Positions 3,277 to 32,747 of a stretch of DNA of 40,913 bases are shown here, piece by piece. How positions within the stretch are numbered: position 1 is the first letter of the stretch; each line of letters opens with the position of its first letter. The stretch is from NCBI GenBank assembly GCA_018433945.1, contig JAHDQF010000061.1, forward strand, positions 1 through 40,913, written 5' to 3'. The translations under genes and the position numbers were made by a program. Source of the DNA: Proteiniphilum sp. GTDB lineage: Bacteria; Bacteroidota; Bacteroidia; Bacteroidales; Dysgonomonadaceae. The notes under the pieces are model-generated. The model was not told the DNA's origin, did no database searches, and saw only the letters and a program-made list of their open reading frames with translations.

Positions 3277-3301
3277 CAATTCTTAGGAATTGGTTTTTTT
3301 T
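3277..3301 (+). terminator. Intrinsic terminator after ctlX
   Basis: CAATTC (3277-3282), loop TTAG, GAATTG (3287-3292), then a G and an uninterrupted run of eight Ts. It lies nine bases after the ctlX stop and before mscL. Confidence 0.7.
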
Positions 3302-3351
3302 ATTCTTACGTTTTAAAACTAGTGTATGAACCCTTTCAATCAAGAAGTAGT

Positions 3352-3774
3352 ATGTCATTCAAATCAGAACTGAAAGAATTTTTAATGCGCGGCAGTGTCG
3401 TAGACATGGCCGTAGGTATTGTGATTGGCGCAGCATTCGGCAAGATCGTCACCTCCTTTGTGAACGATATTTTGATGCCGCCCATTGCCCTGTTGTTCGG
3501 ACAGGGACAGTTTTCAGAACTCAAACTGGTATTGCGGGAAGCCGTGATGAACGGTGTTGATGTGGTTACACCCGCCATCACCTGGAACTATGGTGCCTTC
3601 ATCCAGTCTGTTATTGACTTTCTCATCATCGGTATTTCCATCTTCTTCGTCATCAAGGCGATGAATTCCATGAAACGCAAGAAGAAGGAAGCTCCGGCTC
3701 CCGAAGCTGCGCCTAAACCCACCAAAGAAGAATTGCTATTGACCGAGATCCGCGATTTGCTGAAAAACAAATAG
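3352..3774 (+). CDS. mscL: Large-conductance mechanosensitive channel
   Basis: 140 residues if started at the ATG at 3352, which gives the conserved beginning MSFKSELKEFLMRGSVVDMA; an in-frame GTG at 3322 would add ten unconserved residues and is less likely. MscL forms a pentameric inner-membrane channel that opens on osmotic downshock. The N-terminal amphipathic helix runs into TM1 (VVDMAVGIVIGAAFGKIVTS), followed by the DILMPPI motif, a periplasmic loop, TM2 (FIQSVIDFLIIGISIFFVI) and the cytoplasmic helix ending in KEELLLTEIRDLLKNK. The periplasmic loop and charged linker are of normal length. It appears to be a single-gene unit between a terminator and the ECF-sigma operon. Confidence 0.95.
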   Translation: MSFKSELKEFLMRGSVVDMAVGIVIGAAFGKIVTSFVNDILMPPIALLFGQGQFSELKLVLREAVMNGVDVVTPAITWNYGAFIQSVIDFLIIGISIFFVIKAMNSMKRKKKEAPAPEAAPKPTKEELLLTEIRDLLKNK

Positions 3775-3831
3775 TTCTTCTAAACATTACCCGACAATTC
3801 TACATGATTTGTCGCAGGCAGGTCTCTCTCA

Positions 3832-3852
3832 TCCGGTCAACAGCTGACCGGA
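3832..3852. terminator. Hairpin downstream of mscL
   Basis: Perfect 8-bp arms TCCGGTCA (3832-3839) and TGACCGGA (3845-3852) with loop ACAGC, 58 bases after the mscL stop. Only a short T-rich stretch follows, so it may be a weak terminator or an operator-like palindrome. Confidence 0.45.
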
Positions 3853-3967
3853 CGATTTGTTACGCAATTTACGCAAGAGCGTACATCCCGATCAGCAAAC
3901 AACCAAGTAAAGAACCCATTTTATAAAAAATCAAAAACAATGCTGGTAAAAAAATATCCTTTTTTTT

Positions 3968-3994
3968 TGTAACCGATCCGTCGAAGTGAGCGTC
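3968..3994 (+). promoter_or_regulatory. Candidate ECF-type promoter of the sigma-factor unit
   Basis: A TGTAACC hexamer-like element at 3968-3974 is followed 16 bp later by CGTC at 3991-3994. The GTAAC/CGTC pair with 16-17 bp spacing is the general layout of promoters used by ECF sigma factors. It stands about 48 bases before the first gene of a unit that encodes an ECF sigma factor, consistent with autoregulation. A normal TAnnTTTG element is not seen in this gap. Confidence 0.55.
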
Positions 3995-4041
3995 CCATGT
4001 TTGTAAACAAATGAATAATTCACTTTTAAAAGCATGCAGTT

Positions 4042-4464
4042 ATGGAAGAATTTCTGGGAGAATTAATACCGATTATTGCAATTATTTGTACCATTGGCCT
4101 GCCAATTATTGCCGGATGGATTCTGGGATTACAATGGATCAAGAGTCGCCATGCCGAAAGAATGGGCCTCATTAACCAGGGTATTATCCCACCCGACAGT
4201 CCCAAAAAGAAATCAGATCCCAACCGTTTTGTTTCACTCAGAAACGGGATTGTGCTGGTTGCACTGGGAATAGGAATTATTGTGGGTTTCCTGTGTTCCG
4301 AATACCTGGTAATTGGACAGGGAAATGAGTTCTGGGTTACGAGTGCCAGTGTGGCCTTCTTTCTGGGCGTGGGCTATCTGGTTTATTTCCTGATCGTAAA
4401 AAGAATACCGGTCAACCAGTCAAAGGAGGAAAAGGAGGAAAAGGAGGAAGCAGAACAGGGATAA
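4042..4464 (+). CDS. Small membrane protein (DUF6249-like) in ECF sigma unit
   Basis: 140 residues with three hydrophobic segments: about 8-31 (IPIIAIICTIGLPIIAGWIL), 68-91 and 97-119. After the first comes a cytoplasmic-type stretch KSRHAERMGLINQGIIPPDS, and the C terminus is a highly charged Glu/Lys tail. The N-terminal layout resembles DUF6249 proteins that often precede ECF sigma factors in Bacteroidota; I know no biochemical role. The tail is encoded by three identical 9-bp repeats (4423-4449) that each contain AGGAGG. The gene is nine bases upstream of the sigma factor gene and probably is its cotranscribed partner, perhaps in sensing envelope state. Confidence 0.7.
   Translation: MEEFLGELIPIIAIICTIGLPIIAGWILGLQWIKSRHAERMGLINQGIIPPDSPKKKSDPNRFVSLRNGIVLVALGIGIIVGFLCSEYLVIGQGNEFWVTSASVAFFLGVGYLVYFLIVKRIPVNQSKEEKEEKEEAEQG
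4423..4449 (+). repeat. Three tandem 9-bp repeats (AAGGAGGAA)
   Basis: Copies at 4423, 4432 and 4441 encode Lys-Glu-Glu three times in the tail of the preceding membrane protein. Each copy contains a consensus AGGAGG sequence 25-50 bases before the sigma factor start codon, too far for a normal ribosome binding site. Confidence 0.9.
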
Positions 4465-4473
4465 CCGCTTACG

Positions 4474-5031
4474 ATGAACGAGAATCAACGTGTGCTCCAG
4501 GTGCTTTCGGGCAACACTTCTGCATTTGCATACTTTGTCGAAACCTATCAGGATATGGCGATCACCATCGCCTACCGGATTTGCGGCAACATGCAGGATG
4601 CGGAAGATGTCGTGCAGGAAAGTTATCTCAAAGCCTACCGGAATCTGCACAGTTTTCGTTCAGAGAGCAAATTCTCCACCTGGTTGTATCGCATCGTTTA
4701 CAATACGGCTGTCACGCATACAAAGACACAAATGTGGATGAGAAGCAGAGAGGCAGAGATCGAAGATGCGTCTTATCTGGCTGACAACACACCGGAAATA
4801 GAGATGGGTGAGATGGAGCGAAAAGAGATGGTGGCCAAGGTCATGCAGAAGATGCCTGCGGGAGATGCACTTTTACTCACGCTCTATTATCTGGAGGAAA
4901 ATTCGGTCAAAGAGATTGCAAAGATCACCGGTTTAAACGAACCCAATGTGAAGGTGAAACTGTTCAGGGCAAGGAAACTTTTTAAGAAAATGGTTGTTTC
5001 AGGTTATGGCGTGCAGGTTACAAGTTCATAA
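4474..5031 (+). CDS. RNA polymerase ECF sigma factor
   Basis: 185 residues, normal for an ECF sigma-70 family member. Region 2 spans about 20-90 and contains RICGNMQDAEDVVQESYLKA and FSTWLYRIVYNTA, the -10 recognition and core-binding helices. Region 4 spans about 120-175 with the helix-turn-helix in SVKEIAKITGLNEPNVKVKL followed by FRARKLFKKM. The linker has an acidic EIEMGEMERKEM segment. There is no C-terminal extension. The gene lies between a small membrane protein and a two-TM protein that may be its anti-sigma factor, and the candidate ECF promoter at 3968-3994 suggests it transcribes its own operon. Confidence 0.95.
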   Translation: MNENQRVLQVLSGNTSAFAYFVETYQDMAITIAYRICGNMQDAEDVVQESYLKAYRNLHSFRSESKFSTWLYRIVYNTAVTHTKTQMWMRSREAEIEDASYLADNTPEIEMGEMERKEMVAKVMQKMPAGDALLLTLYYLEENSVKEIAKITGLNEPNVKVKLFRARKLFKKMVVSGYGVQVTSS

Positions 5032-22865: not shown

Positions 22866-23804
22866 TCAGTCATGATTGATATACCGCACAAAGGCAATGC
22901 TGTCTCCATCGGGCGACCAGCTATGCACGTTGATTGTGCCCTGGCCACCGTAAAAAACAGGTGTAAGGTCACGCACCTGTTTGGTCTCCACATCCAGTAA
23001 GCGGAGTTTTACCGCTTTACCGAAGGGATGACTGCCTTTCTGGTCCTCCATGTATGCGATATAGGCGACGCTTTTGTTATCGGGTGAAGGATGCGGAAAC
23101 CAGTTGTCGTACTCATCGAACGTGAGTTGCGTCTGTTCACTTCCATCCGGCCGCATGCGGTAAAGATGCATCCGTCCGGTACGATGGCTGTTGAAATAAA
23201 TCCATTGCCCGTCGTAGCTGTACTCCGGCCCGTCATCCAGTCCCCCGGCATCCGTCAGCCTGATCTCTTCGCCGGTAATCACGTGTGCCTTGTATACATC
23301 CCATTCGCCGTCTCGCAGGGCGCAGTAGCTAACCCATTGGTTATCGGGACTCACGCCGTGCCAGTAACTGGGGTAACCGGCCGTGATCAACCGGGGAACA
23401 CCCCCCGTTGCCGGTAAAATAAAGATCCGTGAATTTCCGCCCGATGAAGAGACCCTTGCATCGCTGTGACTGATGAAAAGCCACCGGCCATCGAAGGTAA
23501 GCCCGTGATCATTGTTGCACCTGTCTGCAAAGCCGGTATCCATCACACCCAGCTTTTTCCCGTCGACCGATACTGTTTCCAGCTTCCCGTCCGCATTGAC
23601 AATCAGAAATTTTCCGTCGCGCGACCAGTTAGGCGCTTCGAAGTGACGTTTTTCGCGGAGGATCACTTTTTCTATCCCGGTTTTTACATTCAGCAGAACC
23701 AGCTCGCTTTCAAGATTTTTTGGAACCTGAGCGACCGCCGCCATGGAAAAGAAAAGAGACAAAATAATGAAACAGATGTGTTGCTTTGTTGTACTTTTGC
23801 CCAT
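22866..23804 (-). CDS. Secreted PD40/TolB-like beta-propeller protein
   Basis: 312 residues with a signal peptide ending AAVAQ (about residue 26). The mature protein is a run of WD40-like PD40 repeats, each with the pattern PxWSxDGKxL or PDxxxVAY: APNWSRDGKFLIVNADGK, GLTFDGRWLFISHSD, HGVSPDNQWVSYCALR, GPEYSYDGQWIYFNSHRTG, HPSPDNKSVAYIAYM and SWSPDGDSIAFVRY. This is a six-bladed TolB-like fold. Such proteins are periplasmic or surface scaffolds, and some bind sugars; no enzymatic motif is visible. It is transcribed alone, divergent from the ATPase island that starts just upstream. Confidence 0.85.
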   Translation of the reverse strand: MGKSTTKQHICFIILSLFFSMAAVAQVPKNLESELVLLNVKTGIEKVILREKRHFEAPNWSRDGKFLIVNADGKLETVSVDGKKLGVMDTGFADRCNNDHGLTFDGRWLFISHSDARVSSSGGNSRIFILPATGGVPRLITAGYPSYWHGVSPDNQWVSYCALRDGEWDVYKAHVITGEEIRLTDAGGLDDGPEYSYDGQWIYFNSHRTGRMHLYRMRPDGSEQTQLTFDEYDNWFPHPSPDNKSVAYIAYMEDQKGSHPFGKAVKLRLLDVETKQVRDLTPVFYGGQGTINVHSWSPDGDSIAFVRYINHD

Positions 23805-23838: not shown

Positions 23839-23886
23839 CAACATTGGGACGAAACCTTGAGGCGTTAGCCCCGTTTTTTTCTGAAT

Positions 23887-23925
23887 TTATGCAAATCATA
23901 AAATTACATTTTTATATTTGCATAA
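23887..23925. repeat. Inverted repeat upstream of the first DUF4143 ATPase gene
   Basis: Arms TTATGCAAAT (23887-23896) and ATTTGCATAA (23916-23925) match over all 10 bases with a 19-base AT-rich spacer. The same TTATGC/GCATAA half-sites make up the 34-bp elements at 25151 and 28047, so it is probably the same kind of site. Confidence 0.8.
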
Positions 23926-23931
23926 AACTTG

Positions 23932-23939
23932 TATCTTTG
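23932..23939 (+). promoter_or_regulatory. -7 promoter element of the first DUF4143 ATPase gene
   Basis: TATCTTTG matches TAnnTTTG, 18 bases before the ATG at 23958. A second possible -7, TATATTTG at 23913-23920, overlaps the right arm of the inverted repeat. Confidence 0.5.
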
Positions 23940-23957
23940 CCAAAAAATCATAGCGTT

Positions 23958-25127
23958 ATGGTTTCAAGAATAATTACAGAGAAAATCAGGTTTTTTGCAG
24001 GCAAATATCCTATCATAACACTCACAGGCACGAGGCAATGCGGAAAATCTACCCTGTTAAAATCGGCGTTCCCTGACTATCGTTATGTGAGTTTGGAAGA
24101 TTTGGACTTTCGAATGATGGCAAAAGATGACCCGCGCGGTTTTTTGCAAAACTTTGGCAGTAAAACCATTATTGACGAGGCACAGTATGTTCCTGAACTT
24201 TTTTCGTACATTCAAACAAAAGTCGATGCTGAAAACAAGGAGGGAATGTATATTTTATCGGGATCGCATAATTTTTTGCTGTTGCAAAACATATCGCAAA
24301 GTCTGGCAGGACGGACGGCCGTACTGAAACTCGCACCTTTTTCCGTTGCAGAACTACAAAACGCCTCACTTTTGCCTGATATGCTTAACGATTTCCTTTT
24401 TACAGGCTGCTACCCGCGCATTTACGACAAACAAATTGCACCCGCCGATTTTTACCCGCACTACATTCAAACTTATATCGACCGCGATATTCGCACAATT
24501 CGCGAAATCAGCAACCTCTCACAGTTCGTCCGTTTCCTCAAACTTTGCGCCGCGCGAACAGGGCAATTATTGAACATTGCCTCGCTTGCAAACGAGGCGG
24601 AAATCAGCGTACCTACTGCCAAGGCATGGCTCTCGCTTTTGGAGAGTTCTTATGTGGTTTTTTTGTTAAAACCATATCACAGTAATTTCAATAAACGGAT
24701 TGTCAAATCGCCGAAACTCTATTTTTACGATACGGGTTTGGCGGCGTCGTTGCTTGGTTTGGAAAATGCCGAACAACTTTCTACCCACTATCTGCGGGGC
24801 GAAATTTTTGAAACGATGGTAATTTCTGACATTGTAAAGCAGCATTTCTTCGCAGGGGTTGAGCCGCAAATCTATTTTTGGCGCGACAGCAATAATAAAG
24901 AAGTCGATTTACTGATTGAAAGCGGCGGTCAGTTGCAGGCAATCGAAATAAAATCTTCCGCCACAATGAAAAACGACTTCTTCGATACGCTGCAACTTTT
25001 TCACTCGTTTAGCGGAATAAGTCCTGAAAATCTGTTTGTAGTTTATGCCGGCGAAACCGATTATGCGACAAAAAAAGGCAGGTTTATATCGTGGAAAAAT
25101 CTAGTCCTTTCTAACCTCCACAGATAA
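23958..25127 (+). CDS. AAA ATPase with DUF4143 domain (1)
   Basis: 389 residues from the ATG at 23958; the frame is open far upstream, but that part is antisense to the PD40 gene and precedes the promoter. Walker A is GTRQCGKST (24-32), Walker B is TIIDEAQ (70-76), and YILSGSHNFLLL (98-109) is the sensor strand. The middle is a winged-helix-like region (ANEAEISVPTAKAWLSLL), and the C-terminal DUF4143 domain has FYDTGLAASLLG and the nuclease-like signature EVDLLIE (315-321) with AIEIKSS (328-334). These ATPases are common in archaea and Bacteroidota and have no established role. Its codons are more AT-rich than those of neighbouring genes, in line with horizontal transfer. Confidence 0.85.
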   Translation: MVSRIITEKIRFFAGKYPIITLTGTRQCGKSTLLKSAFPDYRYVSLEDLDFRMMAKDDPRGFLQNFGSKTIIDEAQYVPELFSYIQTKVDAENKEGMYILSGSHNFLLLQNISQSLAGRTAVLKLAPFSVAELQNASLLPDMLNDFLFTGCYPRIYDKQIAPADFYPHYIQTYIDRDIRTIREISNLSQFVRFLKLCAARTGQLLNIASLANEAEISVPTAKAWLSLLESSYVVFLLKPYHSNFNKRIVKSPKLYFYDTGLAASLLGLENAEQLSTHYLRGEIFETMVISDIVKQHFFAGVEPQIYFWRDSNNKEVDLLIESGGQLQAIEIKSSATMKNDFFDTLQLFHSFSGISPENLFVVYAGETDYATKKGRFISWKNLVLSNLHR

Positions 25128-25150
25128 AGTGCTGTTATTCGAACTATAAA

Positions 25151-25184
25151 TTATGCTTTTTTGCATAATGCTTTTTTGCATAAT
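25151..25184 (+). repeat. 34-bp palindromic element, copy 1
   Basis: TTATGC-TTTTTT-GCATAA followed at once by TGC-TTTTTT-GCATAAT, so two overlapping hairpins share the central GCATAATGC. It is identical to 28047-28080. The second TTTTTTG supplies the -33 TTTG of the next gene's promoter. Confidence 0.9.
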
Positions 25185-25205
25185 ATGGAAAATATCATAC
25201 CTTTG
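25175..25205 (+). promoter_or_regulatory. Promoter of the archaeal-type ATPase gene
   Basis: TTTG at 25175-25178 (inside the 34-bp element), 19 bp spacer, TACCTTTG at 25198-25205. The predicted start of transcription is only about six bases before the ATG at 25218, giving a very short leader. Confidence 0.7.
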
Positions 25206-25217
25206 TAAAAAAAGAAA

Positions 25218-26339
25218 ATGATGAATCCATTTGCTTACGGCACGGTGGTAAAAGGTGAAAACTTTTATGACAGGGAGGATGAATGTAAACGCATTGTAGA
25301 TACACTTGGAGGAGGTAACAACCTTGTGCTTTATGCCCCACGTCGTTTTGGAAAAACCTCATTGGTTTTCAATGCAATAGAAAAATTGGAAACTCAGGGT
25401 TACAGCTGCATATATTTCGATTTTATGCCTGTTTTCTCTCCGGAATCGTTTGTGCGCCTTTACACCAAAGCATTGAGTACTCAACAAAGCAACTTACAGA
25501 AATTCGCAAAAACATTTATCTCTACAGTTAAAAATATTCGCCCCGTTTTAGGATTGGGAGCGGAAGGGAAACTTGAATTTTCTATCGATTTCGCAGACGA
25601 AAAGGTAGACGAGACAATCGTTTCTCAATTAATGGACTTACCGGAAATGATGGCCGGGAAGAACAAACGTATATTGATTTTTTTTGATGAGTTTCAGGAA
25701 ATAGAGAAACTAAAAGATATACACTTTGAAGAACTTCTGCGTAGTAAAGTTCAACAGCAACAACATGTGAACTATCTTTTCTCGGGAAGTAAAACACATA
25801 TCATGCAAGCGATGTTCAACAACAAGCAAAGGGCATTTTATCATGCAGCATCTCAAATGACCATAGGTTATTTACCGGAAAAAGATACGGTCGATTATCT
25901 ACAGCGCAATTTTTCAAAGAAAAATGTCAATGCAAGCGAAGAAATTGCACACTATATTATCACGGTCGCCGCGAACATTCCTCATTATATACAACTACTG
26001 GCAGCTGAAATTTGGCAAAATGTTGAAACAGGGAGCAATATAACGCACGATATGGTGGATACCAGCGTATTACGGTCGCTTGATATGAAAAGCGATTATT
26101 ATATGGAATTGTTTGAACACCAATCCAAAAGTAAAAAACAATTATTACTTGCCCTTTGCAGCAGCGGTAAAAATATTTTTTCGGAAGCCTACATAAGAAA
26201 ATACCGTTTACCAAGTTCCGCAACACTGCAGCGTGCAGCCAGCGGATTAACCAATGACGGAATAATCGACAGGAAGGGCAATGAATTTTTTATTTCCGAT
26301 CCCTTCTTCAAGTTATTTTTAAAAAGAACCGCATTGTAA
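25218..26339 (+). CDS. Archaeal-type ATPase (ATPase_2-like) with winged helix
   Basis: 373 residues starting at the first of two adjacent ATGs (25218, 25221). It opens NPFAYGTVVKGENFYDREDE, the standard N terminus of this STAND/AAA family. Walker A is APRRFGKTS (40-48), Walker B is ILIFFDEFQE (152-161) and the sensor is NYLFSGSKT (185-193). The C-terminal third contains a winged helix: SEAYIRKYRLPSSATLQRAASGL then GIIDRKGNEFFISDPFFKLFLK. It is a different family from the two DUF4143 ATPases flanking it. Function is unknown; NTP-driven switching with DNA or protein binding by the winged helix is likely. It ends 21 bases before a helicase gene fragment. Confidence 0.82.
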   Translation: MMNPFAYGTVVKGENFYDREDECKRIVDTLGGGNNLVLYAPRRFGKTSLVFNAIEKLETQGYSCIYFDFMPVFSPESFVRLYTKALSTQQSNLQKFAKTFISTVKNIRPVLGLGAEGKLEFSIDFADEKVDETIVSQLMDLPEMMAGKNKRILIFFDEFQEIEKLKDIHFEELLRSKVQQQQHVNYLFSGSKTHIMQAMFNNKQRAFYHAASQMTIGYLPEKDTVDYLQRNFSKKNVNASEEIAHYIITVAANIPHYIQLLAAEIWQNVETGSNITHDMVDTSVLRSLDMKSDYYMELFEHQSKSKKQLLLALCSSGKNIFSEAYIRKYRLPSSATLQRAASGLTNDGIIDRKGNEFFISDPFFKLFLKRTAL

Positions 26340-26360
26340 CGAAGCGGAAATTGTTCACAG

Positions 26361-26476
26361 ATGTCAATGTATGTCTTGCCCCACGCCCTATGAATATGCA
26401 AAGGAATTTGTGACCCACACGAACAAGAATCTGTTTATCACCGAAAAAGCCGGAACAGGGAAAACAACCTTCCTGC
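26361..26476 (+). pseudogene. Decayed 5' fragment of the Pif1-like helicase gene
   Basis: These 116 bases match 28201-28315, the first 38 codons of the intact helicase, with eight substitutions and one extra C (about 92 percent identity). The added base in the CCCC run near 26380 shifts the frame and leads to a TGA after ten codons, and the Walker A glycine is changed to Glu. Similarity stops abruptly right after the Walker A codons (TTCCTGC), where the region before the next ATPase begins. It is a relic of duplication or recombination with no coding role. Confidence 0.88.
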
Positions 26477-26480
26477 TTTA

Positions 26481-26612
26481 TATAAGCTAAAATATAGGCT
26501 TCACTACAAAGATACCTATGCAATGATACCAAATATAGACTAAAATACCCCTGCAATGAAACAAATTATTTCTATTTTTACCTATGCAATGAAACAAATC
26601 AACTATATTTGC
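26481..26612 (+). repeat. 33-bp-period direct repeats before the second DUF4143 ATPase
   Basis: Three units start at 26514, 26547 and 26580 exactly 33 bp apart, with the shared core ACCyATGCAATGAAACAAAT (first copy has two changes). A weaker fourth copy can be aligned at 26481-26513. The last core lies between the -33 position and the -7 element TATATTTG (26604-26611), an operator-like placement. Confidence 0.75.
26604..26611 (+). promoter_or_regulatory. -7 promoter element of the second DUF4143 ATPase gene
   Basis: TATATTTG matches TAnnTTTG and lies 25 bases before the ATG at 26637. No TTTG is found at -33; the repeat core occupies that stretch. Confidence 0.55.
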
Positions 26613-26636
26613 AGGTAGAACATTAAAACATACAGT

Positions 26637-27974
26637 ATGTTTAAACGAAATATAGAAATTGAATTGCAAAAATGGGCTGTAAATCCTTATCGGAAACCGT
26701 TGATGTTGCGTGGTGCAAGGCAGGTTGGAAAAACCACCGTTGTAAAAAGCTTCGCAAAACAGTTCGATAATTACCTCTTCGTTAACCTCGAAAAATCATC
26801 GGCAAAACAATTAATGGAAAGTAGCGACGACGTAAAAAAACTGCTCCCGCTTCTGTTCCTCTATTGCAATACTGCACGGAAAGATGGCCGGACACTGCTT
26901 TTTATCGATGAAATCCAACAGTCACCGCACACGGTTTCACTCCTTCGTTATTTCTACGAAGAACTTCCCGAAATATACGTCATTGCTGCCGGCTCTTTAC
27001 TGGAAACTATGCTGGACAAGCATATCTCGGTGCCCGTCGGGCGAGTTGAATTCATGGCCATGCATCCATGTTCGTTTACCGAATTTCTAACTGCCACAGA
27101 TAATGGGCAATATAGAGAGGTTCTTACCGATCCTACGCTAACTATGCCATTTCATCAGGAACTCATGCAATTGTACAACATGTATGCACTCATCGGTGGA
27201 ATGCCGGAAGTTGTGGCACGTTATGCTACAGATTATGATATTGTTTCTTTGTCGGCCATATACAATCAATTACTGAATGCCTACAAAAACGATGTGGAGA
27301 AATATGTCAAAACCGGGACTCAAAGTGCTGTTATCCGATATATTCTGGAAGAAGGATGGGCTTATTCCGGCCAGAACATTACATTCGGAGGGTTTGCCGG
27401 ATCGTCGTACAAAGCGCGCGAAACGGGCGAAGCATTTCGCACATTAAGCAAAGCGATGTTATTGGAATTAGCTTATCCGGTTACACAAACCATTTTACCG
27501 GTCACTTCGGATTTGAAAAAATCACCAAAGCTATTTTGGTTTGATACCGGATTGGTAAATTATTCTGCAGGTATTCAGCGGGAATACCTACTGAGCAAGG
27601 ACCTGATGGATACATGGCGCGGCGCAGCGGCTGAACAAATTGTTGCGCAAGAGCTCTGCGCCTTATCACACGATGCAGGCTCCAAACTCAATTATTGGAT
27701 GCGAAACAAACGGGGAAGCTCTGCCGAAGTAGATTTTATATGGGTACAAGAGGGAAGGATTATTCCGATAGAAGTGAAAGGCGGGCACAACGCCCACTTG
27801 AAATCCATTCACCAGTTTATGGACGAAACCGATCATGATATTGCTGTCAGGATTTGGTCGGGACAGTATAGCATGGATAAAGTGACAACGCTTGAAAAAA
27901 AAGATTTTTGGTTAATAAATTTACCGTTTTATATGATTTCTGAATTACCGGGAATAATCGTTCACTTAACTTGA
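26637..27974 (+). CDS. AAA ATPase with DUF4143 domain (2)
   Basis: 445 residues. Walker A is GARQVGKT (26-33), Walker B is LLFIDEIQQSP (87-97), the sensor strand is YVIAAGSLLE (114-123). AMHPCSFTEFL and YALIGGMPEVV are standard for the family, and the C-terminal DUF4143 domain contains FWFDTGLVNY, then EVDFIWV (364-370) and IPIEVKGG (376-383), an E-V-D...E-x-K arrangement like PD-(D/E)xK nucleases. It is only a distant paralogue of the ATPase at 23958, about 55 residues longer. Its AT-rich composition and separate repeat-containing promoter suggest an independent acquisition, inserted between the helicase fragment and the intact helicase. Confidence 0.87.
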   Translation: MFKRNIEIELQKWAVNPYRKPLMLRGARQVGKTTVVKSFAKQFDNYLFVNLEKSSAKQLMESSDDVKKLLPLLFLYCNTARKDGRTLLFIDEIQQSPHTVSLLRYFYEELPEIYVIAAGSLLETMLDKHISVPVGRVEFMAMHPCSFTEFLTATDNGQYREVLTDPTLTMPFHQELMQLYNMYALIGGMPEVVARYATDYDIVSLSAIYNQLLNAYKNDVEKYVKTGTQSAVIRYILEEGWAYSGQNITFGGFAGSSYKARETGEAFRTLSKAMLLELAYPVTQTILPVTSDLKKSPKLFWFDTGLVNYSAGIQREYLLSKDLMDTWRGAAAEQIVAQELCALSHDAGSKLNYWMRNKRGSSAEVDFIWVQEGRIIPIEVKGGHNAHLKSIHQFMDETDHDIAVRIWSGQYSMDKVTTLEKKDFWLINLPFYMISELPGIIVHLT

Positions 27975-28046
27975 AACGAACAAAAATGACGCAAAGTATT
28001 CCGTTCCCGGGTATCAGAGATGATCAGATTGGGTGAAAAATGATGA

Positions 28047-28080
28047 TTATGCTTTTTTGCATAATGCTTTTTTGCATAAT
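28047..28080 (+). repeat. 34-bp palindromic element, copy 2
   Basis: Identical over 34 bases to 25151-25184, with the same paired TTATGC-T6-GCATAA hairpins. It lies 72 bases downstream of the second DUF4143 ATPase stop and about 70 bases upstream of the helicase promoter. Confidence 0.9.
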
Positions 28081-28150
28081 GCTGATCTCGCATAGTCTGA
28101 TAATTTTTTATATATTCCCTCTAAAAAACCCTGATTTTTATTTTCATACG

Positions 28151-28182
28151 TTTGAGAATACTTCGATTTTCATGTAATTTTG
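28151..28182 (+). promoter_or_regulatory. Promoter of the Pif1-like helicase gene
   Basis: TTTG at 28151-28154, 20 bp spacer, TAATTTTG at 28175-28182; the start codon at 28201 follows a leader of about 12 bases. Complete Bacteroidota promoter. Confidence 0.72.
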
Positions 28183-28200
28183 CTCTTTCAACATTCTCAG

Positions 28201-30360
28201 ATGTCAATGTATGCCCTGCCCACGCCCTATGAATGCGCGAAGGAATTTGTGACCCGCACGAACAGGAATCTGTTTATCACCGGAAAAGCCGGAACAGGGA
28301 AAACAACCTTCCTGCGAAAGTTTCGCGCCGAAACGATGAAACAGACAGCCGTTGTGGCACCCACGGGCGTAGCGGCGGTCAATGCCGGCGGAGCAACCAT
28401 CCATTCCTTCTTCCATCTGCCATTCACCCCCTTCACGCCGACTCCTTCCGGGCGCGAATCACTGATTGCCCGCATAAAGATGAACACGGCACGCCGCCGT
28501 GTGATCCGCGAACTGGAAGTGTTGGTGATCGATGAAATCAGCATGGTACGTGCCGATGTGCTGGATGCCATCGATACGGTGCTTCGCAGTGTGCGGCATC
28601 GGCAGTCGGAGCCTTTTGGCGGCGTGCAGATGGTTTTTATCGGCGATATGTACCAACTGTCTCCAGTAGTTAAAGCCGATGAATGGCGGATACTTTCGGA
28701 TTTTTACCAGGGTATCTATTTTTTCCACAGCAACGTCATTCAGGAACATCCACCGGTTTATGTGGAGTTCGACAAGATCTTCCGCCAGTCCGACAACCTT
28801 TTTATCGAGGTATTGAACCAGGTGCGAAACGATACGCTTACGCCGGAAGGGTTCAACCTGCTGCAAAGCCGCTACGATCCGCATTTTAACCCGTCACCCG
28901 ACGAGAATTACATCACGTTGACCACGCACAATTTCCGTGCCGATGCGATCAATGCCACCGAATTGGAAAAAATCAAAACAACCGTGCATCCATTCAAAGC
29001 GGTGGTGAAGGGTGAATTTCCGGAGAATGCTTTTCCGGTTGATCGGGTTCTCGAGCTGAAAGAAGGAGCCAAAGTGATGTTCGCAAGAAATGATACGGAA
29101 ATTCCCCGACGCTATTTTAACGGAAAAATAGGCACCATCACGCGGATCAAAGAGGAGATGATTACCGTGCTATGCCCGGACGATCCGGATGAAATTAGCG
29201 TATCTCCCGCGATCTGGGAGAATATCCGCTATACCGTCAATCCTGAGACCAACACGGTTGAGGAAGAAATCATCGGGACATACAAACAGATTCCCCTGCG
29301 GCTCGCCTGGGCCATCACCATCCACAAAAGTCAGGGGCTCACTTTCGATAAAGCGATCATCGATGCGGATAAAGCATTTTCACCCGGACAGGTATATGTG
29401 GCGCTGAGCCGTTGCCGGTCGCTCAACAGCCTGGTGCTGAAAAGCCCGATTAACCGTTACAGCATAGCAGTGGATGAACAGATTATCCGGTTTTCATCGT
29501 CAAAACCCGATGTAAACCGGGTAGCCGAAGAGCTGAAATCGGCAAAAGAGCAATTCAGGATAAATTTACTCCTGCAATTGTACAACTTCGATCCGATCCT
29601 CCAGATGGCACGTTCATGGTTCATCGATACAAAGGAAAACGAATCATCCTTTAGCGAAGAAACCGTACTCTTCGTGGGCGAAATCTGTAAGCAGTTGACG
29701 GAACTGGAACAGGTAGCAGCTAAATACAGGGCTCAATTGCAGCGTATCACCGGTCAAACACCTGTCGACAGGGCTTTTTTTGCGGAACGGCTCCATGCCT
29801 CCTCTTCCTATTTCACCGAAAAAATTGATATCTTGTTGCAGACGCTGCAGGAATCGACAGCAACCACCGACAACAGAACAAACGCACAGGCATATGACGA
29901 GGGCATTGCATCCGTTTTTACCGCGGCAGCGCTAAAAAAACACCTGATCTCCGCCACAGCCGCTAACTTCAGCGTAGAGTCTTACTACAGTGCCCGGAAC
30001 CAATTCAGGAACCCACCCTTCTCCATCACCTCATACAGCCGGGACTCATCGGGTCTACCATTAAAAACGACCCATCCCGATCTGCTCAACGAACTGGTGC
30101 AACTCCGTAACCGCATAAGTGCCGCTGCAGGTCTGCCTGTTTATCTTGTCGCCTCCATCAAAACGCTGGTGCAGATGGCAGACCACTTGCCGGAAACAGA
30201 AAAAGAGCTTTTGAAAATACATGGGTTCGGAAAAATAAAAGTGGAACGATTTGGTGCGCAGTTTCTGGAAATCATCAATCACTATTGCACGGCATACGAA
30301 ATAACATCACGCACGATTCATTTTAAGGAAAGCAAAACACAAAAAAAGAGAAAAAAATAA
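28201..30360 (+). CDS. Pif1/RecD-like DNA helicase with HRDC domain
   Basis: 719 residues from the ATG at 28201. SF1B helicase motifs: Walker A TGKAGTGKTT (27-36), VVAPTGVAA, Walker B VLVIDEISM, FIGDMYQLSPV, the UvrD-C-like segment WAITIHKSQGLTFDKAIID and YVALSRCRSLNSLVLK. An HRDC domain lies at about 626-696 (LLNELVQLRNRISAAAGLPVYLVAS ... LLKIHGFGKIKVERFG, given here in parts), and the tail is basic. Such proteins unwind DNA 5' to 3' and may act on stalled forks or G-quadruplexes; the family role in Bacteroidota is untested. A truncated copy of its 5' end lies 1.84 kb upstream. A strong bidirectional terminator overlaps its stop codon. Confidence 0.87.
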   Translation: MSMYALPTPYECAKEFVTRTNRNLFITGKAGTGKTTFLRKFRAETMKQTAVVAPTGVAAVNAGGATIHSFFHLPFTPFTPTPSGRESLIARIKMNTARRRVIRELEVLVIDEISMVRADVLDAIDTVLRSVRHRQSEPFGGVQMVFIGDMYQLSPVVKADEWRILSDFYQGIYFFHSNVIQEHPPVYVEFDKIFRQSDNLFIEVLNQVRNDTLTPEGFNLLQSRYDPHFNPSPDENYITLTTHNFRADAINATELEKIKTTVHPFKAVVKGEFPENAFPVDRVLELKEGAKVMFARNDTEIPRRYFNGKIGTITRIKEEMITVLCPDDPDEISVSPAIWENIRYTVNPETNTVEEEIIGTYKQIPLRLAWAITIHKSQGLTFDKAIIDADKAFSPGQVYVALSRCRSLNSLVLKSPINRYSIAVDEQIIRFSSSKPDVNRVAEELKSAKEQFRINLLLQLYNFDPILQMARSWFIDTKENESSFSEETVLFVGEICKQLTELEQVAAKYRAQLQRITGQTPVDRAFFAERLHASSSYFTEKIDILLQTLQESTATTDNRTNAQAYDEGIASVFTAAALKKHLISATAANFSVESYYSARNQFRNPPFSITSYSRDSSGLPLKTTHPDLLNELVQLRNRISAAAGLPVYLVASIKTLVQMADHLPETEKELLKIHGFGKIKVERFGAQFLEIINHYCTAYEITSRTIHFKESKTQKKRKK

Positions 30361-30386
30361 ACCGATCAATGCCGGTTTATTTTTTT
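30351..30386. terminator. Bidirectional intrinsic terminator between helicase and GH3 gene
   Basis: Two 14-base arms, 30351-30364 (A-rich, ending TAAACCG) and 30373-30386 (CGGTTTA plus seven Ts), pair perfectly around an 8-base loop. It includes the helicase stop codon, has a T-run on both strands and separates two convergent units. Confidence 0.88.
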
Positions 30387-30398
30387 CATTCATCCTTT

Positions 30399-32747
30399 TT
30401 ATTTGTTGGGTGTGTTCCAGATTTTTGTTTCAGTACAATGAACAGCGGCGGTCTGATTGCCCACCTGCAGCATAAAGTCGCCCTCTTCGAGGCTCCATTT
30501 GCCTTGTGCATTCACAAATGCCAGATCTTCACCCTTCAGTTCGAAAGTAACCGTTTGGGTCTCTCCCGGGTTCAGTGAGATTTTCTCAAACGCTCTCAGG
30601 CGACGCACATCGGGCGTGAGAGATGCTACAAGGTCGCTGCTGAAGAGCAACACCGCCTCTTTTCCTTCCACACTCCCACTATTGGTGACATCCACCGACA
30701 CAGTGATCACATCTTCCCAGCTGAAATCTGTTTGATCCACCTGCAGGTTGGCGTAATCAAAGGTGGTATAGCTCAGTCCGTAGCCGAACGGATATTGCAC
30801 CGAAGTCTCTGCCCCGTAATCATACGCACCCTCCATTTTATTCTCCAGGTTCTGACTCGGTTTGTGGTCGTAGGTGATCAACCCCTGTTCATATTTCGGA
30901 TAGGTATAAGGCAGTTTGCCGCTGGGGTTCACATCGCCGCTCAGGATGTCGGCCAGGGCATCTCCCCCGAAATTTCCGGGCAAATAGATCTGCACCACCG
31001 CAGCCGCACCCGGCTCGATCTTGCGGATCAGTCGCGGCCGTCCCTCGTTCAGCACCAGGATCACCGGCTTACCGGTCTGCTGCAGTGCCAGTGCGAGAGC
31101 TGTCTGATTTTCAGACAGGGACAATTCATCCAGATTTCCGGGAGTTTCGCAATAGGAGTTCTCACCCAGGCAGAGCACGATGTAGTCGGCCCCTCTTGCA
31201 GCTGCGACAGCCTTTCCAATCTCAGGCGGATTCTCCTCGAAGTAGTGTCCGTCCATCTTATAAGTAACACCTGGTTCATACTGCACGTTGGCTGCACCGA
31301 ACTTGTTTTGCAACGCCTCATAAATGGTATTGTAATCCTGTGCAAACTCCTCCACCTTCTCTCCCTGCCAGGAGTAGCTCCAGCCTCCGTTGAGCGTACG
31401 CATGGAGTGTGCATTGGGTCCTGCCACAAGAATACGTGCATCAGTAGGCAGGGGAAGGATGTTGTTTTCATTTTTCAGCAGGGTGATCGACTCATCGGCA
31501 GCAGCTTTCGCTACCGCTTTATTCTCACTGCTCCCAAAATCGGGATATTCCTCGCGCGACCAGTAAGGACGCTCAAAAAGTCCCAGTCGATATTTCAATC
31601 GCAACACCCTGCGCACCGCATCATCAATCCGCTCCATCGGCACTTCGCCCTCATCCACCAGCTGGATTAGGGTGGGACAGAAGGCAAGGTTGTAGGGCTC
31701 CATCACCATGTCGATGCCGGCATTGATCGCCCTCTTAACCGCCTCCTTGTAATCAGCAGCCACATGGTCGCGCGAAAGCAGATTCTGCACATCGGCCCAG
31801 TCGGTCAGAATAACCCCGTCGAAGCCCAGATCCTCTTTCAGCCATCCCGTGAGCAGCCGGTAATCGGCATGGGTAGGGATCCCGTTGATGATACCCGAGC
31901 TCACCATCACCGAGAGGGCTCCACCCTCGATGATTGCAGCACGAAAAGGTTCGAAGTATTTCTCGCGCAAATCACTTTCAGGGATCAGCGCAGGAGTACG
32001 ATCCTTACCCGAAACAGGTACCCCGTAACCAAGGTAATGCTTCAGGCAGGCAGCGATGTGTTGATTCCCGACACTGTTTCTATCGTCGCCCTGGAAGCCG
32101 AGAGTGGAAGCCACTGCCATCCGGGCATTGAGGTAAGCATCCTCGCCGTAGCTCTCCCACTGGCGCGGCCAGCGGGCATCCCGTCCCAGGTCCATCGTCG
32201 GTGCAAAGGTCCAGGGGATGTTGCTCGCCCGCGTCTCATAAGCTGAGATGCGAGATCCCTCTTTCATCAGAGCAGTATTAAAGGTAGCGGCCATTCCTAT
32301 CCCTTGCGGGAAGAAGGTGGCGCCGGCGGTGTAGGTGGTGCCGTGAATGGCATCGATGCCGTAGATCACCGGTATCCCCGTCTCCTGCAAGGCTCTTTCC
32401 TGAATGGCACGGATGGTCTTTTCCCACACTTCGGTCGTCCGGGCACGGTTGTTGGCCGTGTTGAGGATAGAACCCACCTTGTATTGCCCGATCACGGTGT
32501 CTAACATTGCCGGGTCCACCTCAAACGGTTCGTCACTCGCATACACGCCGCCGCCCTTTCCGATCACGTCGACTGTATATTGTGCCATCTGCCCCACCTT
32601 CTCTTCGAGGGTCATCTGCGCCATAATGCTGTCGATCTTTTTCTCGATGGCAGCGTCTGACTTCATCCCGACTTTCTCTGCGCCAGAGTTGCAAGCGGTC
32701 AGCAAGGGAATGAAGAGGAAAAAAAGAAAGAATTGTTTTTTGTTCAT
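30399..32747 (-). CDS. GH3 family beta-glucosidase lipoprotein
   Basis: 782 residues, near the usual size of BglX-type enzymes. The signal peptide ends with the lipobox LLTAC (Cys19). The N-terminal TIM barrel has GIPVIYGIDAIHG (124-136), ASNIPWTFAPTMDLGRDARW, KHYLGYG (236-242) and the nucleophile Asp316 in GVILTDWADV. The alpha/beta sandwich follows (ITLLKNENNILPLP, LVAGPNAH), then a C-terminal fibronectin type III-like domain with GYGLSYTTFDY. It would remove glucose from the non-reducing end of beta-linked gluco-oligosaccharides in the periplasm. It is the last gene of the polysaccharide locus, 149 bases after the GH16 gene. Confidence 0.94.
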   Translation of the reverse strand: MNKKQFFLFFLFIPLLTACNSGAEKVGMKSDAAIEKKIDSIMAQMTLEEKVGQMAQYTVDVIGKGGGVYASDEPFEVDPAMLDTVIGQYKVGSILNTANNRARTTEVWEKTIRAIQERALQETGIPVIYGIDAIHGTTYTAGATFFPQGIGMAATFNTALMKEGSRISAYETRASNIPWTFAPTMDLGRDARWPRQWESYGEDAYLNARMAVASTLGFQGDDRNSVGNQHIAACLKHYLGYGVPVSGKDRTPALIPESDLREKYFEPFRAAIIEGGALSVMVSSGIINGIPTHADYRLLTGWLKEDLGFDGVILTDWADVQNLLSRDHVAADYKEAVKRAINAGIDMVMEPYNLAFCPTLIQLVDEGEVPMERIDDAVRRVLRLKYRLGLFERPYWSREEYPDFGSSENKAVAKAAADESITLLKNENNILPLPTDARILVAGPNAHSMRTLNGGWSYSWQGEKVEEFAQDYNTIYEALQNKFGAANVQYEPGVTYKMDGHYFEENPPEIGKAVAAARGADYIVLCLGENSYCETPGNLDELSLSENQTALALALQQTGKPVILVLNEGRPRLIRKIEPGAAAVVQIYLPGNFGGDALADILSGDVNPSGKLPYTYPKYEQGLITYDHKPSQNLENKMEGAYDYGAETSVQYPFGYGLSYTTFDYANLQVDQTDFSWEDVITVSVDVTNSGSVEGKEAVLLFSSDLVASLTPDVRRLRAFEKISLNPGETQTVTFELKGEDLAFVNAQGKWSLEEGDFMLQVGNQTAAVHCTETKIWNTPNK

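What the first reader, a model, noticed from the sequence alone, without database searches (positions are those of the whole stretch)
23880..30390. ATPase-helicase island: two DUF4143 ATPases, an archaeal-type ATPase and a Pif1-HRDC helicase linked by shared palindromes
Four nucleotide-driven proteins of three families follow each other on one strand, each with its own promoter, and three of the four upstream regions carry TTATGC/GCATAA elements. Both DUF4143 proteins keep an E-V-D...E-x-K signature that resembles PD-(D/E)xK nucleases. The genes are more AT-rich than the surrounding chromosome, and a helicase relic marks past rearrangement. Together this looks like a mobile or conflict-type module (defence, anti-plasmid or genome maintenance) that has not been described; the function is inference.
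Basis: partly seen in the sequence, partly recalled or inferred. Interest (0 to 1): 0.72.

Follow-up and report, generated by a model that had tools for sequence, protein, structure and literature searches.

The report
Three stand-alone ATPase genes crowding helicase
A housekeeping helicase gene has had three separate ATPase genes land beside it, and the two of the widespread but unexplained DUF4143 kind belong to a family whose genes tend to carry a private switch, a repeated DNA motif in front of each gene, which makes their unknown job testable.

Summary
The four genes and the TTATGC/GCATAA elements are there, but they are not one module. TolB-like | Pif1-HRDC helicase | GH3 is the genus background; of 18 related helicase loci 3 carry gene B, none A or C. 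A, B and C arrived independently. New here: DUF4143 genes often carry private operator-like repeats at their own promoters, direct iterons of 22-23 or 31-33 bp pitch or ~35-bp palindromes (67 of 96 versus 14 of 90 control promoters). Pitch follows protein family while the letters change, which suggests that each protein reads its own repeats. Gene A is 94% identical to a copy in a distant congener from the operator edge to just before the stop codon and nowhere beyond; another unit (97%) occupies two different sites in one otherwise collinear region of two genomes. So operator plus ORF moves. C lies between an intact helicase and a 123-bp copy of its 5' end; a few other DUF4143 genes show similar duplications. 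Self-regulation, nuclease action and defence are inferred.

The parts
22866..23804 (-). TolB-like beta-propeller protein; ancestral left neighbour of the helicase
   Evidence: Pfam PD40; adjacent to D without ATPase genes in 7 related loci
23886..23926 (+). Operator-like inverted pair TTTATGCAAAT...ATTTGCATAAA in front of A; left edge of the mobile unit
   Evidence: I7; homology to L145 begins at 23888
23932..23939 (+). TATCTTTG, promoter -7-like box of A
   Evidence: consensus recalled
23958..25127 (+). Gene A: AAA_14-DUF4143 ATPase (PDC-S01 type): STAND-like AAA+ / winged helix / PD-(D/E)xK
25150..25184 (+). 35-bp palindromic direct repeat (15-bp pitch), operator-like element of B
25198..25205 (+). 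TACCTTTG, promoter -7-like box of B
25218..26339 (+). Gene B: archaeal-type ATPase (ATPase_2); no nuclease domain found by Pfam
   Evidence: resembles 2fna by sequence
26354..26476 (+). Relic: 123-bp copy of the helicase start region, directly after B
26513..26598 (+). Three iterons (26513-26532, 26546-26565, 26579-26598), 33-bp pitch, private to C
26604..26611 (+). TATATTTG, promoter -7-like box of C
26637..27974 (+). Gene C: AAA_14-DUF4143 ATPase (PDC-S01 type)
28046..28080 (+). Second, identical copy of the 35-bp element, upstream of D without a B gene; probably a duplicated or orphaned B operator
   Evidence: decayed counterpart upstream of D in G027
28175..28182 (+). TAATTTTG, promoter -7-like box of D
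28201..30360 (+). Gene D: Pif1 helicase with C-terminal HRDC; resident gene
30399..32747 (-). Glycoside hydrolase family 3; ancestral right neighbour

Best explanation
The stretch is an insertion hot spot at the promoter of an ordinary Pif1-HRDC helicase, filled by three separately acquired, self-contained ATPase genes. A and C are PDC-S01-type proteins: a STAND-like AAA+ domain, a winged helix and a PD-(D/E)xK nuclease-like domain (A modelled well; C by family). Such genes travel with a short private operator at their own promoter. Most likely the protein binds its own repeats through the winged helix and holds its own expression down; loss of that binding, or recognition of invading or replicating DNA, would raise expression or let it oligomerise with ATP and cut DNA. 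C entered next to the helicase with duplication of about 120 bp or more of the helicase 5' end, as described for restriction-modification genes. Shown by sequence: gene identities, independent occurrence, operator enrichment, pitch conservation, unit boundaries, a changed position of one unit between two genomes, the duplication. Inferred: self-binding, repression, nuclease activity, defence role, the insertion mechanism.
Against: 29 of 96 promoters have no significant repeat. In the second, phylum-wide sample only 3 of 28 have direct repeats in the expected bands, though 20 of 28 pass the inverted-repeat test. Of 12 viral-contig relatives 3 have direct and 1 inverted repeats. L033, closest relative of C (85%), shows no iterons in its 83 bp of upstream DNA (by eye). 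Related genes were counted singly, so Fisher values are too small; the bands and the inverted-repeat settings were chosen after looking. Target duplications are few (raw 9 of 92, about 5 judged real by eye; none in 22 further, partly overlapping rows) and controls give 4 usable rows. In G015 the moved unit is accompanied by about 156 and 84 extra bp, so its exact ends are not fixed. The winged helix rests on the model; the Pfam HTH hit is only E=0.26. No binding, nuclease or phage data exist.
Confidence: 0.62

Rival explanations
1. The four genes form one co-functional ATPase-helicase module (defence, anti-plasmid or genome maintenance) held together by shared elements.
For: Same strand, adjacent, A-C AT-rich; B lies directly upstream of D in 3 of 18 related loci and the 35-bp element is shared by B and D.
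Against: A and C absent from all 18 related helicase loci; no ATPase gene A, B or C found beside D in 15 of the 18; B beside an alaS-like gene in G001 and kept in G028 where D is reduced to a fragment; C has unrelated iterons.
Confidence: 0.05
2. The repeats are not mainly operators but recognition ends: the DUF4143 protein is its own mobility enzyme, cutting DNA with its nuclease domain and moving operator plus ORF, in the manner of a homing or transposase gene.
For: The mobile unit of A starts at the outer edge of the repeats and contains no other gene; a unit occupies two sites in one collinear region of two genomes; target duplications of 94-229 bp at a few loci; repeats on both sides of the gene in L077 and L171; catalytic residues conserved.
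Against: No consistent right end, no fixed target duplication length, no target consensus seen; most units have no duplication; the repeats lie at the promoter, which fits regulation.
Confidence: 0.2
3. The repeats are operators for another, host-encoded regulator, and the genes spread passively (plasmids, transformation, illegitimate joining); the helicase relic is a crossover between two alleles rather than target duplication.
For: The right half of the locus (35-bp element, then D) resembles the B-less allele of the closest relative G027, so joining of two alleles would explain the relic; no protein-DNA binding is shown.
Against: Operators are private to one or two genes in the genome and pitch tracks protein family, which a shared host regulator would not produce; the relic / gene / intact target layout recurs at L175.
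Confidence: 0.2

Closest known systems
PDC-S01 (PADLOC candidate defence; AAA_14 + DUF4143; ATPase fused to PD-(D/E)xK)
   Same: A and C match its models over almost the whole length (E 2e-102 and 4e-180); single gene, broad and patchy distribution. PMC12988326 (passages) calls it the fourth most common defence across prokaryotes and says that validation is pending for most of these candidates.
   Different: None of my literature searches brought up the iteron or palindrome operators, the unit boundaries or the target duplications; the original paper that defined PDCs was not seen.
Restriction-modification genes inserting with long, variable target duplication (PMC3031569, passages, citing Nobusato 2000, not read)
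   Same: Gene between a target gene and a partial copy of it; duplication length varies (94-229 bp here).
   Different: No methyltransferase; seen at only about 5 of 92 DUF4143 genes; exact insert ends not obtained for C.
Archaeal-type ATPases (ATPase_2; 2qen, 2fna)
   Same: B belongs by Pfam score; the AAA+ and winged-helix part of A has this fold.
   Different: A and C add the nuclease-like domain; B has no such domain detected.
Orc1/Cdc6 and iteron-binding initiators
   Same: AAA+ with winged helix; repeated sites at helical spacing (2qby_B in the Foldseek list; the iteron analogy is recalled).
   Different: Sites sit at the gene's own promoter and no replication role is indicated.
Bacteroides-type Pif1 helicases (5fhd, 8bnv; the organism label is recalled)
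   Same: D aligns over residues 5-434 with 8bnv (E 1.6e-103).
   Different: Carries a C-terminal HRDC domain.

Membership tests
PDC-S01 / AAA_14-DUF4143 (genes A, C) | AAA_14 and DUF4143 domains over Pfam cut-offs | tested here: met
   A 95.2 and 173.7 bits, C 92.3 and 74.4 bits
PDC-S01 / AAA_14-DUF4143 (genes A, C) | PADLOC PDC-S01 model over most of the protein | tested here: met
PDC-S01 / AAA_14-DUF4143 (genes A, C) | Walker A/B and PD-(D/E)xK residues kept | tested here: met
   98 proteins
PDC-S01 / AAA_14-DUF4143 (genes A, C) | Embedded among defence genes | tested here: inconclusive
   139 neighbour ORFs: single hits to Type III (and II) methyltransferase, AbiEi, AbiEii, SoFic, RtcR-like and RT models, five to mad3; 141 random ORFs: two RT / homing-endonuclease-like (25 of 41 and 25 of 34 matched families shown)
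PDC-S01 / AAA_14-DUF4143 (genes A, C) | Protects against phage | not testable with these tools
   needs an infection assay
Self-regulated gene with private operator | Repeats at the gene's own promoter beyond shuffles and control genes | tested here: met
   as a family 67 of 96 versus 14 of 90; C itself p 0.01; A itself only p 0.06-0.08
Self-regulated gene with private operator | Operator confined to the gene | tested here: met
   C iterons only at 26514-26598 in the genome; the B element also lies before D; A's not searched genome-wide
Self-regulated gene with private operator | Own protein binds it | not testable with these tools
   indirect only: pitch follows family, winged helix in the model
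Insertion with long target duplication | Gene flanked by a target gene and a direct partial copy | tested here: met
   26354-26476 versus 28194-28315, 91.9%
Insertion with long target duplication | Locus with a single copy and no insert in relatives | tested here: met
   no C beside D in 18 of 18 related loci; junctions read in G027, G017 and others
Insertion with long target duplication | Exact insert ends definable | tested here: inconclusive
   left end 26477 clear; right end lies between 27974 and 28046, complicated by the second 35-bp element
ATPase_2 (gene B) | PF01637 over cut-off | tested here: met
   51.5 versus 33.2 bits
Pif1 helicase with HRDC (gene D) | PIF1 and HRDC domains over cut-off | tested here: met

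The most novel reading that the evidence does not exclude
DUF4143 genes are the smallest self-mobilising units known to me: one ORF whose ATPase-nuclease product reads iterons in front of its own gene, uses them both as operator and as self-recognition end, and inserts operator plus ORF into new sites with long, variable target duplication, while doubling as a defence or exclusion factor.
Probability: 0.18. Interest if true: 0.88.

Novelty: new variant of a known kind. Interest (0 to 1): 0.6.

Why it matters
PDC-S01 is reported as the fourth most common defence system of prokaryotes (PMC12988326, passages), and nothing found here tells what its proteins recognise. If such a gene carries the DNA sequence that its own protein reads, the recognition code of many of these proteins can be read from their promoters, and binding, regulation and nuclease triggering become straightforward bench tests. 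It also gives a simple reason for the patchy, single-gene spread of the family.

Tried and rejected
Co-functional module: rejected, see rival 1. Fixed short target-site duplication: exact flank repeats of 13 bp or more in 4 of 93 units versus 1 of 461 shuffled partners, but one is self-palindromic (L176), one is simple sequence (L050), one is iterons (L077) and one is part of a long duplication (L175); no constant size. L146 has an inexact ~18-bp flank repeat (seen), not followed up.

Empty sites by joined flanks: for L145 no relative held both flanks side by side. For L146 the flanking genes are adjacent in G021 and G010, but some extra DNA beside the unit is missing there too; reading both regions side by side showed the change of position told in the report but not the exact ends. 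Model of C: pLDDT 61, unreliable for residues 212-324, not used. Close relatives of A and C in viral contigs by single sequence: none; with an alignment 12 A-type relatives.

Weaknesses of my counts: of 101 control promoters found, 90 were used (random draw). In one search one gene (C) is listed twice. In one search, 7 of 11 control rows are artefacts of a negative slice in my script and were dropped; the other 4 (L140, L142, L143, L153) are mostly simple repeats; the 185 controls may still include badly cut rows without a hit. L135 has a misplaced start. Which duplications are real was judged by eye: of the 9 rows, 3 (L050, L056, L143) were set aside as simple or dispersed repeats and 1 (L165) as flanking transposase-like fragments. 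The orthologous genes L079 and L142 and other close relatives were not thinned out.

Neighbourhood test: of 149 neighbour ORFs 139 were scanned (10 long ones dropped) and of 169 random ORFs 141 (11 long ones and the 17 others of two loci dropped); only the first 25 matched families of each scan are shown.
Full report
What is there. Four + strand genes lie between a TolB-like gene and a family 3 glycoside hydrolase, both on the - strand. A (23958-25127) and C (26637-27974) are AAA_14-DUF4143 proteins, B (25218-26339) an ATPase_2 protein, D (28201-30360) a Pif1 helicase with an HRDC domain. PADLOC assigns A and C to PDC-S01. D is close to solved Pif1 helicases. A, B and C have 38-43% GC; D has 50% against 53% in the flanks.

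The background locus. D was found at E below 1e-200 in 25 of 60 relatives. In the 18 loci with D at 62% identity or more (L004-L021, at most 1.5 kb of flank each and less where contigs end), tblastn with the window's proteins found B in 3 (L006, L007, L010) and A or C in none. The TolB-like gene and D are direct neighbours without any of the three ATPase genes in 7 of them: L004, L009, L012, L013, L019, L020 and L021 (in L004 only the start of the TolB-like gene is on the contig, read by eye). In the closest relative, G027 (L004, D 90%), the interval holds only a decayed copy of the 35-bp element. So D is a resident gene, and A, B and C came in one by one.

The helicase relic. 26354-26476 is a 123-bp, 91.9% copy of the D start. 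It directly follows B, as the D start does in B-only relatives, and it ends at 26476, where DNA not found at D begins. C therefore sits between a partial and a complete D. The same layout, partial copy / DUF4143 gene / intact target, occurs at L175 with an oxidoreductase-like gene (151 bp, 78%); a copy of the end of an argB-like gene flanks L077 (94 bp, 86%), a 5' copy of an mmcQ-like gene flanks L060 (229 bp, 69%), and in L171 150 bp including the operator are repeated (98%) (these gene names are by eye). In all, 9 of 92 units gave a flank-to-flank repeat, about 5 of them convincing; controls gave 11 of 185, of which 7 are script artefacts. A further set of 22 rows, partly overlapping, gave none. 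So this is a recurring but minority pattern. It resembles the 'long and variable target duplications' described for restriction-modification systems (PMC3031569, passages).

Private operators. Upstream of C lie three iterons (TACCTATGCAATGAAACAAA type) 33 bp apart, ending next to a TAnnTTTG box. They match nowhere else in the genome at up to one mismatch. Relatives of C at 68-74% carry near-identical arrays, and relatives at 47-55% arrays of about the same pitch with other letters (L041 at p 0.05, those judged by eye); L033, at 85%, shows none in the 83 bp available. Over 68 distinct DUF4143 promoters, 29 have a direct repeat at p<=0.02 against dinucleotide shuffles, versus 12 of 90 control promoters from the same loci. 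The lags of the DUF4143 hits are 22-23 (7), 31-33 (20), 44 (1) and 14 (1); control lags are scattered. A phylum-wide second sample gave only 3 of 28 in these bands, but most of its members have a palindrome of about 35 bp at the promoter: 20 of 28 pass the inverted-repeat test, against 2 of 90 controls; in the first sample 16 of 68 pass it. Taken together 67 of 96 DUF4143 promoters versus 14 of 90 controls have one or the other (Fisher p 3e-14, too small because relatives were not thinned out). Gene A's own inverted pair is only marginal (p 0.06-0.08). A TAnnTTTG box lies within 80 bp of the start in 61 of 68 versus 29 of 90.

The unit that moves. A is 94.3% identical in DNA to L145 (G015) over 1214 bp, in genomes whose helicases are only 53% identical. 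The match starts at the outer edge of the operator and stops 23 nt before the end of the coding sequence; the last codons and the stop then come from different flanking DNA, and no other similarity was found within 2.5 kb on either side. L065/L146 (97%) behave alike, ending 7 nt before the end; L036/L037 (99%), L178/L182 (92%) and L142/L149 (90%) end 14-111 nt after it. For the L065/L146 unit the surroundings could be compared: in G021 contig 10 it lies at 3300-4530; in G015 it lies on the far side of a 3.7-kb block that follows it in G021, between that block (85%) and the next (98%), which are 9 bp apart in G021. In G015 about 84 and 156 bp of extra DNA come with it. So the same unit occupies two sites of one otherwise collinear region. 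G000 has 12 DUF4143 matches and the other genomes of the genus 0 to 20. B also keeps its 35-bp element when it stands beside an alaS-like gene in G001.

The 35-bp element. It stands before B in all six B loci seen at 65% identity or more, as a variant in G001. Its second copy before D (28046-28080) has no B; G029, G024 and G027 also have such an element before D without B. I take these as left-over B operators; the perfect state of the window copy could mean recent duplication with C or use by D, which I cannot decide.

Function. A defence or exclusion role is plausible from the family label and the nuclease fold. Neighbouring genes gave few defence hits: among 139 ORFs single matches to Type III/II methyltransferase, AbiEi, AbiEii, SoFic, RtcR-like and RT models and five to mad3, against two RT / homing-endonuclease-like ORFs in 141 random ORFs (lists capped at 25 families), which is weak. 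In the library searched, DUF4143 is named in one paper only, which lists an AAA 14-DUF4143 gene, TT_P0211, downstream of a CRISPR locus of Thermus thermophilus (passage). None of my searches brought up a report of the operators.

Verdict. The new and testable part lies in the DUF4143 genes themselves: private, helically spaced operators that travel with the gene.

Noticed in passing
L077 (G054), 861-922 and 2074-2135; 729-818 and 2227-2318: Iterons stand both before and directly after the DUF4143 gene (first pair), next to a duplicated end of an argB-like gene (second pair).
   Followed up: partly
L171 (G120): A stretch of about 160 bp with the whole operator palindrome is repeated at 98% after the gene, diverging right at the operator's edge.
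   Followed up: partly
L165 (G075): DUF4143 gene flanked by two fragments resembling REP-associated transposases (TNHAHLL motif, recalled).
   Followed up: no
L285 = G208 contig 23, 203039-204361 and 204989-206131: A C-type and an A-type DUF4143 gene lie next to each other, converging.
   Followed up: no
L047 (G028), 2660-2760: B and its 35-bp element persist although the helicase behind it is reduced to a short fragment.
   Followed up: partly
Helicase loci of G023, G004, G022, G031, G009: The Pif1-HRDC gene is split (G023), has one in-frame stop (G004, G022, G031) or matches only in part (G009), so it may be dispensable; draft assemblies could be at fault.
   Followed up: no
L142 and L157: A 368-codon frame near the DUF4143 gene is flanked by a 60-bp direct repeat in L142 (a control hit).
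   Followed up: no
L146 (G015): An inexact repeat of about 18 bp (CAATAGNATTTACCTNAA) flanks the unit; it may be a short target duplication.
   Followed up: partly
L220 (G021 contig 6, 270-1153): DNA like the extra stretches beside the L146 unit stands here around about 550 bp of other sequence without a convincing DUF4143 match.
   Followed up: partly
L140, L143, L158 and other loci of the genus: Arrays of GCTGATAGCTGA/CTGATTCCTGA simple repeats stand upstream of several genes and inflate repeat tests.
   Followed up: no
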